This document shows, piece by piece, positions 2,790 through 58,430 of a stretch of DNA of 64,000 nucleotides. Within the stretch, counting starts at the first letter, position 1. Each line of letters starts with the position of its first letter. This DNA is from Prosopocoilus inquinatus. Taxonomy: Eukaryota; Arthropoda; Insecta; Coleoptera; Lucanidae. The translations under genes were made by a program, and so were the position numbers. The stretch spans positions 6,448,001-6,512,000 of the forward strand of contig CM069871.1 of NCBI GenBank assembly GCA_036172665.1, read 5' to 3'. The notes beneath the pieces are model-generated. The model was not told the origin of the DNA, made no database searches, and saw only the letters and a list, made by a program, of their open reading frames with translations.

Positions 2790-4470
2790 CACCTGTCCAT
2801 GACGAACCTAATCTTTTATTTCGTATACCCGTCTTAAAGTAGGTGATGAATGATAGATCCGGACTGAAACATATTGATAACACCTTGTAGGTGTATTTAA
2901 AACGTGTACGTCTGTGACGAACCTAATCTTTTATTTCGTGTACCCAAGCTGAGCATATTTTGGCAGTTGCCTAATTTATTGCACCTAATATAAATACTAT
3001 AACAATCCTGCAGCATAATTTTTAAGTTCAAAACAATTTTAAAGCTGTTTCTTTTTAATGACTGGGCATTTAGAGAAACCAATCAAGAAAACGCAAGATA
3101 ATAGAAAGTATATTTCTCCTAAAGAGGGACGTATAGTCATTACACTCATCTCAAAGTAGGTGATGAATGATAGATCCGGACTGAAACATGTTCATAACAC
3201 CTCGTATATTGAAAACCATTAGGAATATTTTGACAGTTTACTAATGGATTACTTCCAATATAAGTACTGTAACAATCCTGTAACATAATTTTTAAGTTCA
3301 AAATGATTGTATGGCTGGTCTTTTGAACTCTGGACATGAAGAAGAAGCGATCAAAAGCGTAACACAAGAGAAAACAGAAAATCTGTCCCTCCTAAAGAGA
3401 GACGAATGGTCACTTTAGTATATCCATAATGAATGACAGATCTGGTTTGAAACTTATTGATAATATCTTGTATGCTTGAGACCATTAATGAATCTTTTTA
3501 TTTATAATCATATACCCATCTTACAGTACGTGATATTATGATAGATCCGGATTGAAACATATTGATAACACCTCGTATATATAATACCATTAGGAATAGA
3601 ACGTGTACGTCTACGTCGAACCTAATCTTTTATTTCCTGTATCTAAACTGACCATATTTTGACAGTTTACTAATGGATTACTTCCAATATAAGTACTATA
3701 ACAATCCTGTAACATAATTTTTAAGTTCAAAATGATTGTATGGCTGGTCTTTTGAACTCTGGACATGTAGAAGAAGCGATCAAAAGCGTAACACAAGAGA
3801 AAATAGAAAATCTGTCCCTCCTAAAGAGAGACGAATGGTCACTTTAGTATATCCATAATGAATGACAGATCTGGTTTGAAACTTATTGATAATATCTTGT
3901 ATTCTTGAGACCATTAATGAATCTTTTATTTATAATCATATACCCATCTTAAAGTACGTGATATTATGATAGATCCGGATTGAAACATATTGATAACACC
4001 TCGTATATATAATACCATTAGGAATACAACGTGTACGTCTACGTCGAACCTAATCTTTTATTTCCTGTACCTAAGCTGACCATATTTTGACAGTTTCCTA
4101 ATCGATTACTCCTAATATAAGTACTATAACAATCCTGTAACATAATTTTTAAGCTAAAAACGATTGTACGGCTGTTCTTTTAAACTCTGGACATGAAGAG
4201 GAACCGATCAAAAGCGTAACACCAGAGAAAATAGAAAACTTGTCCCTCCTAAAGAGAGACGAATGGTCACTTTAGTATACCCATAAAAATGATAGATCTG
4301 GTTTGAAACACATTGATAATATTTCGTATATTTGAGACCATTAGTGAATCTTTTATTTATAATCGTGTCCCCCAACATAAAGTAGGTGATATTATGATAG
4401 ATCCGGATTGAAACATATTGATAACACCTTGTATGTTTGAGACCGTTAGGAATGAAGTGTGTGTAAGCGT
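2790..4470. repeat. Complex satellite with a 428-bp higher-order period
   Basis: The landmark ATAGATCCGGA occurs at 2853, 3170, 3541, 3969 and 4397. The last two spacings are both exactly 428 bases; the earlier ones (317 and 371) reflect shortened units. A second, related half-unit landmark (AGATCTGGTTTGAAAC near 3438, 3867 and 4294) shows that each unit is a diverged dimer. Other shared blocks are CGAACCTAATCTTTTATTTC and TAACAATCCTGTAACATAAT. The reverse frame is open over part of the unit and yields near-identical short peptides in adjacent copies, as expected from repetition; I see no start, splice or domain evidence that it is coding. Confidence 0.9.
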
Positions 4471-35479: not shown

Positions 35480-36239
35480 TTCAAATATAAAATAAAAATA
35501 TAACCAGCCCTGTTAATTAATGGGGAAAAAAAATGCAAAGTCGAGTGACCAATAAATACTATCGAAATAGCCAATATTTACCAATTCGTTTTAGTAATGG
35601 CTTCCCTATTCAATTAAATTCCAAATTGAAATATTCCTTCTACATAATCCAGCACAGATCTGAACTGCCGCATAATTAATTGCAAAACAATTTGCGTAGG
35701 GACACAGCGATTATCCTAAACAACGTTATTCAATTTGGCAAAACAAAACAAAACTGTCAATCACTATAATAATTTATTCGTTCCCCCCACCCCCCTCACC
35801 GCGAAACATTCGGGCAAATGAAGCGCGATCCAAATTAAACACATAGGCGATAATAATTTAATTATTAATTCGTTTCTCATAATAATAATAATAATATTTT
35901 ATTCCGAGCAAGATCCAATAATACCATGGACGGCGGCCTGCAGTTTTCGATTAGTATAACTCGGAATGACTCCATCGCAGCAGGCAAGGTGTTATTTTCC
36001 CGAAAGCAAAAGTGAATAAGAGAAACGCCAAAGCACAAGAAAAAAAAACGACGTACGTAACAAGGTAGTAATTTAAAGCGTACTTTCTTATACAGCGGTA
36101 ATGACATCGCGCAATAAAGTGAGTCGGTAATTCGCGTGTATTACAGAAAAATAAAAAAACAAGTGCGCGCGGTGCACACACGAGGAGCATTCACGTGAGA
36201 CTCCGTTTTATTTCTGCAAAACGAATTACAAGAGGGTAA
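35480..36239. other. No gene recognised
   Basis: Single-copy AT-rich sequence with a C-rich run (TTCCCCCCACCCCCC near 35781) and an (AAT)n run near 35879-35895. Confidence 0.45.
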
Positions 36240-37400
36240 TCTTGAGAGACCTTTTAAAATCATTTACTATCCGCTGGTCGCATTCTTGTATTCCACTTCG
36301 CAAAGGAATATTTGAAGTCTTAACTTTGCCAATCAATTTTCAAAAAAAAATTTCCTTCCACAACAACCTTTCTGCATAACGTGAAGTGTAAACAAGAGGC
36401 CTTTTGAAATAACTTAGTATCCGCTGGTCGCATTCTTGTACTTCGCTTTGCAAAGTCTTTAACCTTGCCATATTCAATTTTCAAAAACTCTTCCCTCCAC
36501 AATAAACTCTCTGTAAGACGAAATACAAAAGAGTTTTCTTGAGTGGCCTTTTAAAATAATTTACTATCCTTTGGTCGCATTCTTGTATTCCACTTTGTAA
36601 AGGAATATTTGAAGCCTTAACTTTGCCAATCAATTTTCAAAAAAAATTTCCTTCCACAACAACCTTTCTGCATAACGTGAAGTGTAAACAAGAGGCCTTT
36701 TGAAATAATTTAGTATCCGCTGGTCGCATTCTTGTACTCCGCTTTGCAAAGTCTTTAACCATGCCATATTCAATTTTCAAAAACTCTTCCCTCCACAGTA
36801 AACTCTCTGTAAGACGAAATACAAAAGAGTTTTCTTGAGTGGCCTTTTAAAATAATTTACTATCCTTTGGTCGCATTGTTGTATTCCACTTTGCAAAGGA
36901 AGTCTTAACTTCGCCAATCAATTTTCAAAAACTTTTTCCTTCCACAACAAACTTTCTGCAAAACGTAAAGTGTAAACAAGAGTGTAAACTTGACACGCCT
37001 TTTGAAATAATTTAGTTTACGCTGGTCGCATTCTTGTATTCCACTTTGCAAAGTCTTTAACCAATTTTCAAAAACTTTTCCCTCCACAGCAAACTTTCCG
37101 CAAGACGAAATACAAAAGAGTATGCTTGAGAGGTCTTTTAAAATACTTTAGTATCCGCTGGACGCATTCTTGTATTCATCTTTGCAAAGAAAAATTTGAA
37201 GTCTTAACCTTGCCATACAATTTTCAAAAAGTTTTTCCCCGTAGCAAAACGTAAAACACACCAGATCTTGAAAGGTCTTTTAAAATATTTTAATATCCGG
37301 TGGTTGTATTCTTGTATTCCACTTCGCAAAATGAAATTTGAAATCTCAAGCTTGCCATGCAGTTTTCAAAAAAAAAGAAAACCTTTTTTTCTTCCACACC
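36240..37400. repeat. ~148-bp tandem array with dimeric higher-order structure
   Basis: TGGTCGCATTCTTGTA-type landmarks at 36275, 36425, 36572, 36721, 36868, 37023, 37159 and 37301 give eight units of 136-155 bases. Alternate units are more alike than neighbours: units 1 and 3 share GGAATATTTGAAG, and units 2 and 4 share AACTCTTCCCTCCACA. The recently amplified unit was therefore a ~297-base dimer. The last units are more diverged. Confidence 0.9.
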
Positions 37401-39339: not shown

Positions 39340-40370
39340 AAAACTTAAAAAAAATTTAAGCTTGAAATAAAACAAAACTAAATAATTCTAATTTGAAAAA
39401 AAAATCGAAGTCTATTTTAATTAAGTCCAACCCAAACAAGGTTAATTTAGCTCAAATCTCCCTAACTTAGGTCGTCAAAATTTAGAAAAAATTCAAAGCT
39501 ACCAAAAAATTTCAATTCAATTGTAATTAGGGGCAGTTGAGCTCAATTTAACTCGACCTTAACCAAGCATAAAATTGAGAGACTCCAAAATATTACAACT
39601 TCATAAAATTCAAACACAATTAGTAAAAAAAATAAAAAGATTCAGATTTAGAACTCAAAAACTGAAAAACCTCAACACTCAAAAAATAAACTTAAGAATC
39701 GAAACATTTAAAAGCCAGCCCAATTCAGTTCAAAGTTGGATTTTTAATTGGTTTTAATTTTTTTTTTCTTGTTTTCTGGGTTGGGTTGTGTTGCTTGTGT
39801 CCGACTTCACTTTGATAGAGTTTTGTTTTGAGTATTTTTTTTAGTTTTAATGAAAATAATTAAAACAAAATTGAACAATTGAAACAAAACTCAACCAAAA
39901 TAAAGTCGGACACAAGTCTTGCTTGTATCCGACTCAACTCAAAACAAAACTTAATCAAAATAAAGTCGGGCTCACGCAAAAAAAACCCAACCCAACTCAA
40001 TACAGCAAAGAGAAAGGTTAAAACCAATCAAAACACTTAAAAATCCAAACACAATTTAAGCAAGTCTACCTATATTCTAAATAAAGAAATTTTAACTTTA
40101 ACAATGAAAAGTCAAAATTAAAATTTAAAAAATTTAAATCTCAACAAAACTTCAAAAAATTAAAAATTGGAAGTCCCAAAAAGTCCAACTTGCAAGACGT
40201 AAAACTTTATTAAAGTTAAATCCAACCCAATTTGAAGTCACTATAGCTCTACCCAACCCAAACAAAAAATTAAAAATCCAACTCAACCCAACCAACTCAA
40301 AAACAATCCAACTCAACCTAATTCTACAGAACCAAACCAAAAATTAAAAATGAAACTAGCAAGTGTATTC
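39340..40370. repeat. A-rich AACTCAACC-type repeat family, locus 1
   Basis: Made of recurring AAAAATTAAAAA and AATCCAACCCAACTCAA modules. It includes an internal inverted repeat around 39800-39970, where AAGTCGGACACAAG and CTTGTGTCCGACTTC-like blocks face one another. The same vocabulary appears at 44200-46060, 51700-51830 and 62760-63520. Confidence 0.7.
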
Positions 40371-44199: not shown

Positions 44200-46060
44200 A
44201 AGTAACACAAGATAGCATATTATGTATCAAAGAGGAGAAAAGCATATTTAAAAAGTATTTAAAAAATTAAAACTGAAAATATGTTAAAATTCAAATTATA
44301 ACAATTAATACTTCAAACTGAAAAAAGGTTAAAACTTAACACAAATGCTTAAAAAATCAACCTTTAAATTTAATTAAGTTGAACCCAAACAAAGTCGATT
44401 CAATCAAATCAACCTAACTTCAAGCAAAAAATTGTGACTCACAAAACAAACTCATCAAGAAAATGAAAATAAAACTTACAAACGAAGCCTCGAAACACCA
44501 AAAAAAATTAATAAATGAATTGAAACTCAACTTAACTCGACTCAATCAACCTGAGACTAAAATGTATTAATATTTATAACATTGAAACTCAGAAAGTTTA
44601 TTAATTAACTTAAAACAATGTAAAATTCAGTACAACTCAAAGCAAGGTTAATCCAAGTTCACTCAACTTAAGCTGCATTCAGTCCAAGTAAAAAATTTAA
44701 AATTAAAATAAAACTGAGAAGTTACTCGAAACAAAACACAATCAGAATTCAGACGAACGCAAGTAAGATTAAACCCGACTCCGTTCAATCCGGAACTCAA
44801 GAAAAAAAAATTAAAAACACGAAATTAAAAAAATTAAATCTCAAGATATTAAAACTTGGGACTCAAAAAATGAAACCTTTTATAAAAATCAAAACTCATT
44901 TTAAACAAATTAAATTAAATAAAATTCAAATGGACTAACTCGAGCCAACACCTGCAAAAAATTAAAAACACTCAAAAAATGAACTTGAAAATTGAATTAA
45001 AATTCAATCCAACCCAACTCAGGGATAATCCAACTGCACTCAACCTAACTGTACCAAGTTCAAGAAAATAATTAAAACAATTAAGGCGTACACACGAGTA
45101 AGATCAACCTAACTCCGCTCAATCCAGAACAAAAGGAGAAAAAATTAATTCCAATTAAAAAAAAAACTCAAAAAAAAATCAAAACTCAATTTGTCTCCAA
45201 TCTAAGCAAGACCTCTGCTCAGAAGGAATTTAAACACGAAAGTACTAATGAAATGAAAACTAAAACTCAAGATTAATACTTTAAAAATAAAATCTCAAAA
45301 AATTAAAACTTGCGACTTAAAAAAGCCGAGTTGGACAAATGTCGTTGTTAACTAATTCTTGATTAAACGCAGGATTTTCTACGCTTTAATTCGAGATTTA
45401 ACTTTTTAACTCGTTTCAAGTGGACATAAATCTCAAAAATCAATAAAAAAACTTGACGCTCAAAATAATTAAATATCAAAACTCAATCCTTGATTAAACA
45501 TGGGATTTTCTATGCTTTAATTCGAGATTAACTTTAATCAATCTCGGACATAAATCTCAACAAATTAAAAATTGTCACTCAAAAAAAAAATAAATATCAA
45601 AACTCAATCCTTGATTAAACATGGGATTTCTTATGCTTTAAGTCGGGATTAACTTTAGTCAGCGTCGATTCAACTGCACATAAGTCTGAAATCTCAAAAA
45701 ATTAAAACTCGACACTCAAAAAAATTAAAAATCAAAACTCAATCCTTGATTAAACTTAGGATTTTCTATGCTTTAATTCGAGGTTAAATTTAATCAATTT
45801 CGGTGCAACTGGACATAAATTAATTAAAACTTGACGCTGAGAAAAGTTAAATATCAAAACTCAATCATTGACTGAACACAGGATTCTCTACACTGTAATT
45901 CGAGATTAACTTTAATCAGCGTCGGTGCAATTGGACATAAGTCTTAGAAAATTAAAAAAACTTGACGCTCAAAAAAATTAAATTTCATAACTCAATCAAA
46001 TTTAAGTCTAATCCAACTCAAATCAAATTAATTGTACCCAACCCAAAGAAAAAAATTAAA
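44200..46060. repeat. A-rich AACTCAACC-type repeat family, locus 2
   Basis: The largest copy of the family seen at 39.3, 51.7 and 62.8 kb. Modules such as ATTCAATCCAACCCAACTCA, TAAGATCAACCTAACTCCG and AGAAGGAATTTAAACACGAA are shared with the 62.8-kb locus in the same order. It contains a regular sub-array at 45359-45980. Confidence 0.75.
45359..45980. repeat. Five-unit sub-array, 121-135-bp period
   Basis: TTGATTAAAC-type landmarks at 45359, 45490, 45611, 45746 and 45868 (the last is TTGACTGAAC). Each unit contains GGATTTTCTATGCTTTAATT and a dyad GATTAACTTTAATC, so every unit can form a small stem. A single unit of the same type occurs at about 63396 in the right-hand locus. Confidence 0.85.
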
Positions 46061-46502
46061 ATTGAAAATAGTACGTTCCTGTACCAGTTTCTAGACTGTA
46101 ATACTTCTGAACCATCAGAACCTTGATGATTGCAATTTCTTGACTGGTTCAAATTAATCAGAAACGGATGCAGGAACAGATCTAATTAAAACAAAAAGGA
46201 AAACAAAAGTCAAATAAAATTAAGTGCAACACATTTCAACTTGGAAAAACAGAAAAAACGAAAAGAAGATTTAAAAGTAATTAAAAAAATAAACAGTTAT
46301 TGAAAGTTATTATTGTTTCGAATTTCAAGGTTCGTTTAAAATTTATTTTAAAATAAAATACTCGCTAAATCTAATAACTAATTTATTAACAACGTTACGC
46401 TAGCACCAATTTATTTCATGCGGACTATAAATTAATTTAAATTTTAAATTAAAAAAAAAATTGTTGCAAATCGTTTTTGATTGCAGTGAAACTCTCGAGC
46501 AG

Positions 46503-46548
46503 CCTCTGTACAGCTGTTTCACCCTACTTGAGGCTTCCTCAGCAGAAA
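46503..46548 (-). ncRNA. Hammerhead ribozyme-like motif, type I, core intact
   Basis: Read on the minus strand. Stem I 5' strand TTTCTG (46548-46543) pairs with CAGAGG (46508-46503), including two G-U pairs. CTGAGGA (46542-46536) fits the catalytic consensus CUGANGA. Stem II AGCCT...AGGGT (46535-46521) has one mismatch and a CAAGT loop. GAAA is at 46520-46517. A minimal palindromic stem III (CAGCTG within ACAGCTGT) closes the A15.1-U16.1 pair, and A at 46509 is the predicted cleavage nucleotide (GUA). Short palindromic stem III is typical of hammerheads in Penelope-like elements and retrozymes, which are thought to work as dimers. No reverse transcriptase of that class was seen nearby. Confidence 0.6.
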
Positions 46549-46619
46549 AAAAAACTATCTAGGATGTCGCTGTTTAAACTAATTTATTTCTGTTGATTAT
46601 GGTCCATAATTAGGGAGAA

Positions 46620-57346: not shown

Positions 57347-57363
57347 AGTGGGGCCCTCAAGCA

Positions 57364-57414
57364 TCCTCTGTATAGCACTATTTCGGTCCTAATTGGGGCC
57401 TGATCAACAGAAGA
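57364..57414 (-). ncRNA. Hammerhead ribozyme-like motif, core mutated
   Basis: Minus strand. Stem I TCTTCTG (57414-57408) pairs with CAGAGGA (57370-57364) over seven positions. The core reads TTGATCA (57407-57401), two changes from CUGAUGA (C3 and G8), so catalysis is not expected. Stem II GGCCC...GGACC (57400-57385) has one mismatch. GAAA is at 57384-57381. Stem III ATAG/CTAT (57381-57378 and 57375-57372) has a TG loop, and A57371 is at the cleavage position. Sequence after the motif (GATGCTTGAGGGCCCCACTG) matches that after the 46.5-kb motif, so both derive from one family. Confidence 0.55.
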
Positions 57415-58100: not shown

Positions 58101-58430
58101 GTAAAGTACTTTGGTGCCGCCATCTATTTTTTGTTGCAGCGCTCAAGTTTTTCAAGGTCATTTCTGACAAGTATGTACGTAGTAAATTCAATAAATTATC
58201 ACAAATTAAAGGGAAAGATTTAGTATAATTAAATTAAATTAATTAAGAAAAGAAACACATGTGACAGATGTGATAGAAAAAGTCTGTCACATCTGTCACA
58301 TTTTTCTGTCCTCCTATCAGTGTTTCTTTACTTGATTAATTCAATAAATTATAGACGTATTTGAAGCAAGATGTGTAGATGGCAGAACAGGTGATATTTT
58401 ATAGTTTAATTACACCAACACAACCATACA
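58101..58430. repeat. Duplicated segment, copy carrying a hairpin insertion
   Basis: Homologous to 56571-56745 on both sides of an extra segment (58200-58352). The left part is 58101-58199, and the right part resumes at about 58353, through AATTACACCAACACAAC. Confidence 0.75.
58200..58352. mobile_element. ~153-bp insertion with a long hairpin, flanked by 15-bp direct repeats
   Basis: AATTCAATAAATTAT occurs at 58185-58199 and again at 58338-58352, and only once in the paralogous site at 56.65 kb. The insertion contains a bipartite stem. The outer arms 58237-58258 and 58320-58341 end AGAAACAC/GTGTTTCT, with one mismatch and one bulge. The inner arms ATGTGACAGATGTGATAG (58259-58276) and CTGTCACATCTGTCACAT (58284-58301) have one mismatch and a seven-base loop. 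It may be a small MITE or a local duplication; a precursor-microRNA-like shape is also possible. Confidence 0.55.

What the first reader, a model, noticed from the sequence alone, without database searches (positions are those of the whole stretch)
46503..46548. Hammerhead ribozyme-like motif with a complete catalytic core
On the minus strand the sequence can form all three hammerhead stems around CTGAGGA, GAAA and a GTA cleavage site. Every universally conserved core position is kept (CUGANGA, GAA, A15.1-U16.1, H17). Stem III is a palindromic minimal stem, as in the dimer-forming type I hammerheads of Penelope-like retroelements and retrozymes. A functional self-cleaving RNA in otherwise gene-free DNA would be a real functional element.
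Basis: partly seen in the sequence, partly recalled or inferred. Interest (0 to 1): 0.9.

Follow-up and report, generated by a model that had tools for sequence, protein, structure and literature searches.

The report
Hammerhead ribozyme of a beetle retrozyme
The spot is one worn copy of a very abundant, roughly 311-base jumping element in a stag beetle genome that carries a hammerhead ribozyme (an RNA expected to cut itself) and appears to be copied into DNA by the enzyme of a Penelope-type retroelement, which bears on an open question about how such ribozyme elements move.

Summary
The motif is real. The window copy (minus strand, 46546-46499) keeps the hammerhead core but is a decayed, 5'-truncated insertion: its stem II lacks a base, and Rfam gives no hammerhead match even at E 10. 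Its family is convincing. The genome (650 Mb; stag beetle by a nuclear COX1 copy) holds 14,251 exact matches to a 34-nt hammerhead pattern, 0 for the reversed pattern. Among copies N7 varies freely, the essential core little, and subfamilies swap stem I and II pairs on both sides. Direct copies repeat every 311 nt. This is a metazoan non-LTR retrozyme family, a known kind. New, as far as my searches show, is the insertion architecture: copies mostly sit head-to-head, 3' ends outward, one end about 60 nt and the other about 198 nt past the cleavage site, with 13-14 bp target duplications at the five clearest loci. A young Penelope-like element in the same genome (RT plus GIY-YIG) inserts the same way, with two fixed ends and 11-15 bp duplications. 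A 2024 paper calls that two-site "tail" signature unique to Penelope-like elements. Best reading: retrozyme RNA is a trans template for a Penelope reverse transcriptase. Cleavage and mobilisation are inferred, not shown.

The parts
46449..46580 (.). whole composite insertion: retrozyme sense arm (minus strand) plus inverted arm, head-to-head, one short and one long outer end
   Evidence: L048 1550-1681, '-+', ends u=60 and u=194; coordinates converted; sequence
46449..46546 (-). sense arm: hammerhead motif and the sequence to the poly-T (short) end
46555..46580 (+). inverted arm: the long-end 'tail' of the element (..GATGTCGCTGTTTAAACT on the + strand)
   Evidence: inner boundary read by eye
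46499..46546 (-). match to the family's hammerhead covariance model R1 (65.4 bits; this copy is one of the 37 rows R1 was built from)
46536..46542 (-). core CTGAGGA (C3-A9; N7 = G)
46521..46535 (-). stem II and loop; one base shorter than relatives and with one C-to-T change
46517..46520 (-). GAAA (G12, A13, A14, A15.1)
46510..46517 (-). palindromic minimal stem III ACAGCTGT (2 bp plus tetraloop as a monomer, 8 bp if two copies pair)
   Evidence: pairing inferred
46509..46509 (-). H17 (A); predicted cleavage 3' of this base
   Evidence: inferred from hammerhead rules (recalled)
46505..46508 (-). stem I 3' strand CAGA, pairing with TCTG 46546-46543
57361..57411 (-). second, older copy (R1 45.2 bits); core broken at C3 and G8

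Best explanation
The window feature is a decayed copy of a high-copy retrozyme family: a ~311-nt retroelement with a type I hammerhead ribozyme and no reverse transcriptase of its own. Proposed cycle: tandem copies are transcribed; the hammerheads cut the RNA into 311-nt units, probably best when two hammerheads share the palindromic stem III; units may be ligated into circles. A Penelope-like element's protein (RT plus GIY-YIG endonuclease) takes the RNA in trans, cuts both strands of an AT-rich target and starts reverse transcription internally at one of two sites, about 60 and about 198 nt 3' of the cleavage site. One cDNA from each strand gives a head-to-head pair with a short and a long outer end, variable inner (5') truncation and short target duplications. 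The window copy is such an insertion, truncated right at the ribozyme and since mutated. Shown: family, structure conservation, unit length, architecture, duplications at part of the loci. Inferred: transcription, cleavage, circles, the Penelope protein acting in trans.
For: 14,251 exact matches to the 34-nt hammerhead pattern, 0 in the reversed control. In 65 of 73 extracted copies N7 varies in 38 of 65 and eleven essential core positions in 12 of 715 cells; the other positions, without N7, H17 and two variable loop II positions, in 86 of 2210 (Fisher p 0.0038). On 77 distinct rows 35 cells have both-side pair changes against 11.8 +/- 2.9 in shuffles (0 of 500 reach it), with A-U 53 / G-C 14 at 10.1-11.1 and U-A 49 / C-G 14 in stem I. 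Seven Rfam Hammerhead_1 places over cut-off in this genome. Period 311 nt; direct neighbours 311, 312, 312, 624 and once 1024 bp apart. Architecture, 40 loci chosen by similarity: junctions 39 head-to-head, 5 direct, 2 tail-to-tail; of 92 outer 3' ends 44 lie at u 54-74 and 38 at u 185-211, 10 elsewhere; 28 of 37 head-to-head composites have one short and one long end. Ten loci taken in genome order instead: junctions 9 head-to-head, 1 tail-to-tail; 6 of 8 such composites have one short and one long end. First 100 pattern places in genome order: -+ 17, -- 4, ++ 1, +- 0. Duplications >=9 bp in 13 of 39 loci against 21 of 400 mismatched pairs. Penelope family: RT and GIY-YIG domains; 47 -+, 1 --, 0 +- neighbours; duplications of 11-15 bp in 15 of 15 loci, against 12 of 400 controls at >=9 bp, and two end types. 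PMC11167929 reports the two-start, both-strand mechanism in vitro.
Against: No Penelope element with the retrozyme's own ends was found: the young Penelope shares no blast-detectable sequence with the unit, and a short shared motif beside the short end is weak (29 to 240 of 2000 shuffles reach the score). The two ends lie about 137 nt apart here, against about 39 nt in the local Penelope. 9 of 37 composites and 2 of 8 in genome order lack the one-short-one-long pattern; 26 of 39 loci show no duplication >=9 bp. The 40 loci were picked by similarity to a copy that has the short end, so short ends are favoured there. Hammerhead: in four family loci searched at E<=10 Rfam gave one Hammerhead_1 match (L026, 26 bits, cut-off 34) and one Hammerhead_HH9 match (L041, 19.6 bits), none in L018 or L037; 20 loci at gathering gave none. 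The 14 control genomes are the tool's set; those it names are prokaryotes, so they say little. The family has A10.1-U11.1 instead of the usual G-C, and G at H17 in 3 of 65 copies. Two weaker covariation measures are not beyond shuffles (pairs changed on both sides 43 of 500, pair types 60 of 500; 98 of 500 each). A shared distal stem II variant (6 of 65) breaks a pair. MFE folds favour an inactive GCUG/CAGC pairing. No RNA data.
Confidence: 0.8

Rival explanations
1. Chance hammerhead look-alike in AT-rich intergenic DNA.
For: No Rfam match for this copy even at E 10; the bare core pattern is common by chance; a different hairpin is the MFE.
Against: Genome-wide family with 14,251 exact pattern matches and 0 in the reversed control, free N7 and conserved core, compensatory changes in stems I and II.
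Confidence: 0.02
2. A MITE or foldback DNA transposon with terminal inverted repeats; the hammerhead resemblance is incidental to its palindromic ends.
For: Inverted arms, high copy number and short duplications are also seen in such elements (general knowledge); head-to-head pairs.
Against: The two outer ends differ (short and long) in 28 of 37 composites and 6 of 8 in genome order; inner junctions vary from copy to copy, as with 5' truncation (23 loci); direct neighbours at 311-312 bp spacing; the Penelope element in the same genome shows the same architecture.
Confidence: 0.04
3. The repeat is the pseudo-LTR of a so far unseen autonomous Penelope element, and the copies are its solo pLTRs or 5'-truncated ends rather than an independent retrozyme.
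For: Same insertion signature as Penelope; 11 of the 12 GIY-YIG loci fetched have a Penelope-type hammerhead motif.
Against: Units repeat directly at 311-312 nt, which leaves no room for an RT ORF; of those 12 GIY-YIG loci (+/-1.5 kb) only L070 holds this hammerhead, on the strand opposite to its GIY-YIG match.
Confidence: 0.12

Closest known systems
Metazoan non-LTR retrozymes (Cervera and de la Pena 2020, PMC7229834; abstract, parts 1-2 of 3 of the Results, and the Discussion read)
   Same: 311-nt unit, tandem copies, type I hammerhead, GC 43%, target duplications longer than 4 bp where seen, very high copy number, strongly self-paired circle predicted.
   Different: That paper's main text has no occurrence of 'inverted' or 'head-to-head' and describes tandem repeats; here most adjacent copies are head-to-head with two preferred ends. 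The L018 circle's MFE has the ribozyme mispaired, whereas the paper says most metazoan circles leave it free.
Penelope-like elements and their minimal hammerheads (PMC3846280, passages; PMC11167929, abstract, passages and part 1 of 2 of the main text; Cervera 2014 and Lunse 2017 not held, known from citations)
   Same: Head-to-head inverted copies, optional tail at one end, short duplications, hammerhead with palindromic or minimal stem III.
   Different: No RT or endonuclease found in the unit, no detectable sequence similarity to the local Penelope, and ends about 137 nt apart instead of about 39.
Amphibian satellite and axolotl retrozymes (from PMC7229834, Results part 2)
   Same: ~330-nt repeats, one or two stem III pairs capped by a tetraloop, weak monomers and active dimers reported there.
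   Different: Different sequence and host; no cleavage test here.
Dolichopoda cave cricket pDo500 satellite (PMC2837043, search listing and start of abstract only)
   Same: Insect repeat family with a hammerhead.
   Different: Described there as satellite DNA; architecture not compared here.

Membership tests
Type I hammerhead ribozyme (Rfam RF00163) | Conserved core CUGANGA, GAA, A15.1-U16.1, H17 (list recalled) | tested here: met
   Window copy. Family: core 12 changed of 715 cells, N7 38 of 65; H17 is G in 3 of 65.
Type I hammerhead ribozyme (Rfam RF00163) | Three base-paired stems | tested here: inconclusive
   Family: 92.4% of cells paired, compensatory changes in stems I and II (alignment fitted to the structure, unfitted). 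Window copy: stem II lacks one base.
Type I hammerhead ribozyme (Rfam RF00163) | Score over Rfam gathering cut-off (34 bits) | tested here: not met
   Window copy: none. 20 family loci at gathering: none. Of 4 loci at E<=10 only L026, 26 bits. 7 of 8 genome matches pass, six of them of a diverged subfamily.
Type I hammerhead ribozyme (Rfam RF00163) | Self-cleavage | not testable with these tools
   Needs in vitro transcription.
Metazoan non-LTR retrozyme | 150-450 bp unit in direct tandem with one type I hammerhead per unit | tested here: met
   311 nt between two cleavage sites in L018; direct repeats about 310 nt apart also in L037 and L040; spacings 311, 312, 312, 624. The window copy itself is less than one unit.
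Metazoan non-LTR retrozyme | GC under 50% | tested here: met
   43.1% in the L018 unit.
Metazoan non-LTR retrozyme | Target duplications longer than 4 bp when present | tested here: met
   13 of 39 loci >=9 bp against 21 of 400 controls. For the window copy the AT-rich flanks give no clear duplication.
Metazoan non-LTR retrozyme | No LTR, PBS or PPT | not tested
   No search was made for these.
Metazoan non-LTR retrozyme | Linear and circular RNAs of unit length | not testable with these tools
   No RNA data.
Penelope-like element (autonomous) | ORF with RT and GIY-YIG endonuclease | tested here: not met
   The window element is 132 bp. The longest Met-started frame in the doubled 311-nt unit is 121 aa, longer than one lap; it was not searched for domains.
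Penelope-like element (autonomous) | Head-to-head insertion with a tail at one of two fixed ends | tested here: met
   for the retrozyme; for the local Penelope element.

The most novel reading that the evidence does not exclude
Animal retrozymes are trans-mobilised by Penelope reverse transcriptase, and this beetle shows it in its genome: retrozyme RNA, possibly the circle, is copied from two internal start sites, one per target strand, giving the Penelope-specific head-to-head, two-tail insertion. The palindromic stem III may act as a switch: multimers cut as paired hammerheads, while the released unit locks its own core (GCUG with CAGC) and stays intact as a template.
Probability: 0.55. Interest if true: 0.8.

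Novelty: new variant of a known kind. Interest (0 to 1): 0.6.

Why it matters
The 2020 paper and a later review name Penelope-like elements only as the strong or likely candidate to mobilise animal retrozymes, on the grounds of co-occurrence and shared hammerheads, the paper also of tandem copies. A genome with 14,251 exact matches to the retrozyme's hammerhead, whose sampled copies carry the Penelope insertion signature, turns that into a testable statement: predicted start sites about 60 and 198 nt past the cleavage site of a known RNA, with an open 787-aa Penelope frame in the same genome. It would also explain how a ribozyme RNA without a reverse transcriptase became so abundant.

Tried and rejected
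Rfam at gathering and at E<=10 on the window: no hammerhead. Bare core pattern with a wrong spacing: uninformative. tRNA scan: none. Blast of the retrozyme unit against 16 Penelope loci: nothing. Shared motif between the Penelope and retrozyme short ends: 29 to 240 of 2000 shuffles reach the score in six copies, so not relied on. Target duplication of the window copy: AT-rich, no clear repeat; the window copy was not scored. Species: the COX1 copy is 99% identical to a Lucaninae cluster whose representative is Dorcus parallelipipedus, but that species' genome is 470.9 Mb (start of abstract in the listing) against 650 Mb here, so the species is left open.

Rows dropped and samples: the variability count used 65 of 73 copies; two partial or hybrid copies, the diverged-subfamily rows and, with them, one ordinary copy in L053 were left out. 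The pair counts use 37 chosen copies. The end-class table used 37 composites that run - to + of the 55 listed, with wider end classes (50-81 and 181-212) than the clusters quoted. The inner-junction list typed into one search is 23 loci taken by eye. The 40 loci are the best matches to the window copy, not a random sample; the ten are the first in genome order. One search uses the 150 scored hits of 2232 candidates, so copy numbers from it are lower bounds. In one search, 12 of 15 Penelope loci were scored as one short and one long end; three ends were not classified by the script.

Literature searches: (and 70 for the species). One search ('retrozyme', 'Penelope', 'head-to-head') found 0 papers. 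The library holds open-licence papers only, so 'new' means not found by these searches.

Full report
What was checked. Its core is complete, but stem II is damaged compared with relatives: one base of the 3' strand is missing and one C reads T. Rfam finds no hammerhead in the window at gathering, nor at E<=10 over the window or over 501 bases around the motif. Taken alone this copy would be a weak case.

The family. The window lies in a 650-Mb genome, contig C3:6448001-6512000. A DNA search with 181 bases gave 49 matches with 40 of 1173 candidates scored; after the copy itself the next 39 rows are 82-94% identical over about 95-150 bases, and the last nine are shorter or weaker. The copy itself and those 39 were fetched with flanks; one search aligns the repeat in all 40, as expected from how they were chosen. 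A 34-nt pattern with free N7 and two free loop II positions has 7128 forward and 7123 reverse exact matches, and the reversed pattern has none. The host is a stag beetle by a nuclear COX1 copy, 99% identical to a Lucaninae COX1 cluster.

Is it a hammerhead? In 65 of the 73 extracted copies, N7 departs from the majority in 38, two loop II positions in 28 and 27, and H17 in 13 (10 C, 3 G). The eleven fixed core positions depart in 12 of 715 cells and the remaining 34 positions in 86 of 2210 (Fisher p 0.0038; copies are related, so p is rough). Ninety-three covariance-model matches over 59 sources, 77 distinct, show 92.4% paired cells and 35 cells with changes on both sides, against 11.8 in shuffles and at most 10 in slid versions. 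The 10.1-11.1 pair is A-U in 53 rows and G-C in 14; the outermost stem I pair is U-A in 49 and C-G in 14. Two measures are not beyond shuffles: pairs with a both-side change (7 against 5.0, 43 of 500) and further pair types (17 against 15.1, 60 of 500). That alignment is fitted to the structure; the unfitted one of 37 sequences gives the same direction with smaller numbers (9 cells against 1.9, 0 of 500; the other two measures 98 of 500 each). Rfam Hammerhead_1 has 8 matches in the genome with 74 of 83220 candidates scored, 7 over the cut-off, and 0 of 14 control genomes; the control genomes that the tool names are prokaryotes. Six of the seven loci (L049, L050, L052, L053, L054, L055; L053 and L054 have the same sequence there) carry a diverged subfamily at the match. 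Against: in four main-family loci at E<=10 only L026 matches Hammerhead_1, with 26 bits of the 34 needed, and L041 matches HH9 with 19.6 of 52; 20 loci at gathering gave none.

What element it is. Direct copies repeat at 311 nt (L018), and the first 100 pattern places show direct spacings of 311, 312, 312, 624 and 1024 bp. The unit has 43% GC. The natural L018 unit folds as a circle at -101.5 kcal/mol against -75.8 +/- 5.3 for 100 shuffles, none as low. In that fold the hammerhead core GCUG pairs with CAGC of the palindrome, an inactive arrangement; ViennaRNA does not model hammerhead tertiary contacts. These features match the metazoan non-LTR retrozymes of PMC7229834.

How it inserts. Mapped on the unit (0 = cleavage site), 46 junctions between neighbouring pieces in the 40 loci are 39 head-to-head, 5 direct and 2 tail-to-tail. 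Of 92 3'-outward ends, 44 fall at u 54-74 and 38 at u 185-211. Of 37 composites running from a minus to a plus piece, 28 have one end of each group, 2 two short, 2 two long, and 5 have an end elsewhere (classes 50-81 and 181-212). The 40 loci were chosen by similarity to a copy with the short end, so I repeated the analysis on the first ten pattern loci in genome order: 9 head-to-head and 1 tail-to-tail junction, and 6 of 8 minus-to-plus composites with one end of each group; the other two have ends 56/105 and 61/65. Inner ends are scattered, as with 5' truncation (23 loci). Target duplications of 9 bp or more are seen in 13 of 39 loci against 21 of 400 mismatched pairs; five are 13-14 bp. The window copy has one end of each group, u 60 and 194, but no clear duplication.

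The Penelope element. A GIY-YIG search gave 150 scored hits of 2232 candidates. Neighbours within 10 kb are 47 head-to-head, 1 direct, 0 tail-to-tail. One locus, L081, has two 787-aa ORFs with RT and GIY-YIG domains (one of them searched). Of the 15 other loci fetched, 14 align with L081 as two-arm insertions and L095 as essentially one arm; the aligned pieces are 99-100% identical. In 15 loci analysed (L095 left out), duplications are 11-15 bp in 15 of 15 (controls 12 of 400 at >=9), and 12 of 15 are scored as one short and one long end; three ends were not classified. The long end is 39 nt longer. Its pLTR has its own hammerhead-like motif with a palindromic stem III, and four other GIY-YIG loci without nucleotide match to L081 (L071, L073, L074, L079) have minimal hammerhead-like motifs. 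PMC3846280 describes head-to-head as the most frequent arrangement and an optional 31-bp tail on one inverted pLTR. [quoted passage not shown] The same paper found hammerhead cleavage not necessary for insertion in vitro, so the ribozyme step is not required by the Penelope enzyme itself.

Reading. The retrozyme carries the same signature, so the most economical explanation is that a Penelope protein copies it in trans. PMC7229834 and PMC7761336 propose this from co-occurrence and shared hammerheads, the former also from tandem copies. What is missing is a specific partner: no sequence shared with the young Penelope was found by blast, the two ends are about 137 nt apart instead of about 39, and a short common motif near the short end is not convincing. 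The alternative that the unit is the pLTR of an unseen Penelope family remains open at about 0.12.

The copy in the window is a fossil: 132 bp, cut off right at the ribozyme so that the long stem I is gone, with a broken stem II. A second fossil at 57411-57361 has lost C3 and G8. The finding is therefore right about the kind of thing and, in all likelihood, wrong about this copy being a working element.

Noticed in passing
L081 733-3096 (-) and 5063-7426 (+); many loci: A very young Penelope-like family (787-aa ORF, fetched copies 99-100% identical) inserted mostly as head-to-head pairs with 11-15 bp duplications; good material for studying Penelope integration.
   Followed up: partly
L049, L050, L052-L055, and the matches near 1500 in L058-L068: A diverged hammerhead subfamily, several members with canonical G10.1-C11.1 stem II; six of its places are over the Rfam cut-off; 41 matches with 40 of 264 candidates scored. 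Its element boundaries were not mapped.
   Followed up: partly
L071, L073, L074, L079: Further GIY-YIG loci with their own minimal hammerhead-like motifs in which one extra base follows the core before stem II pairs.
   Followed up: no
L037 1009-1256; window 39794-39916, 58226-58351: Plant microRNA models score below their cut-offs on palindromic repeat sequence; in L037 this spans the head-to-head junction, in the window the hits on both strands suggest unidentified inverted repeats.
   Followed up: no
window 3225-4453, 36213-37230, 45350-45997: Tandem arrays with periods of about 428, 296 (or 147) and 122-256 bases; R1 lists no match in them at E<=1.
   Followed up: no
L097 and 41 other matches: Many nuclear copies or fragments of mitochondrial COX1, one nearly complete.
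   Followed up: no
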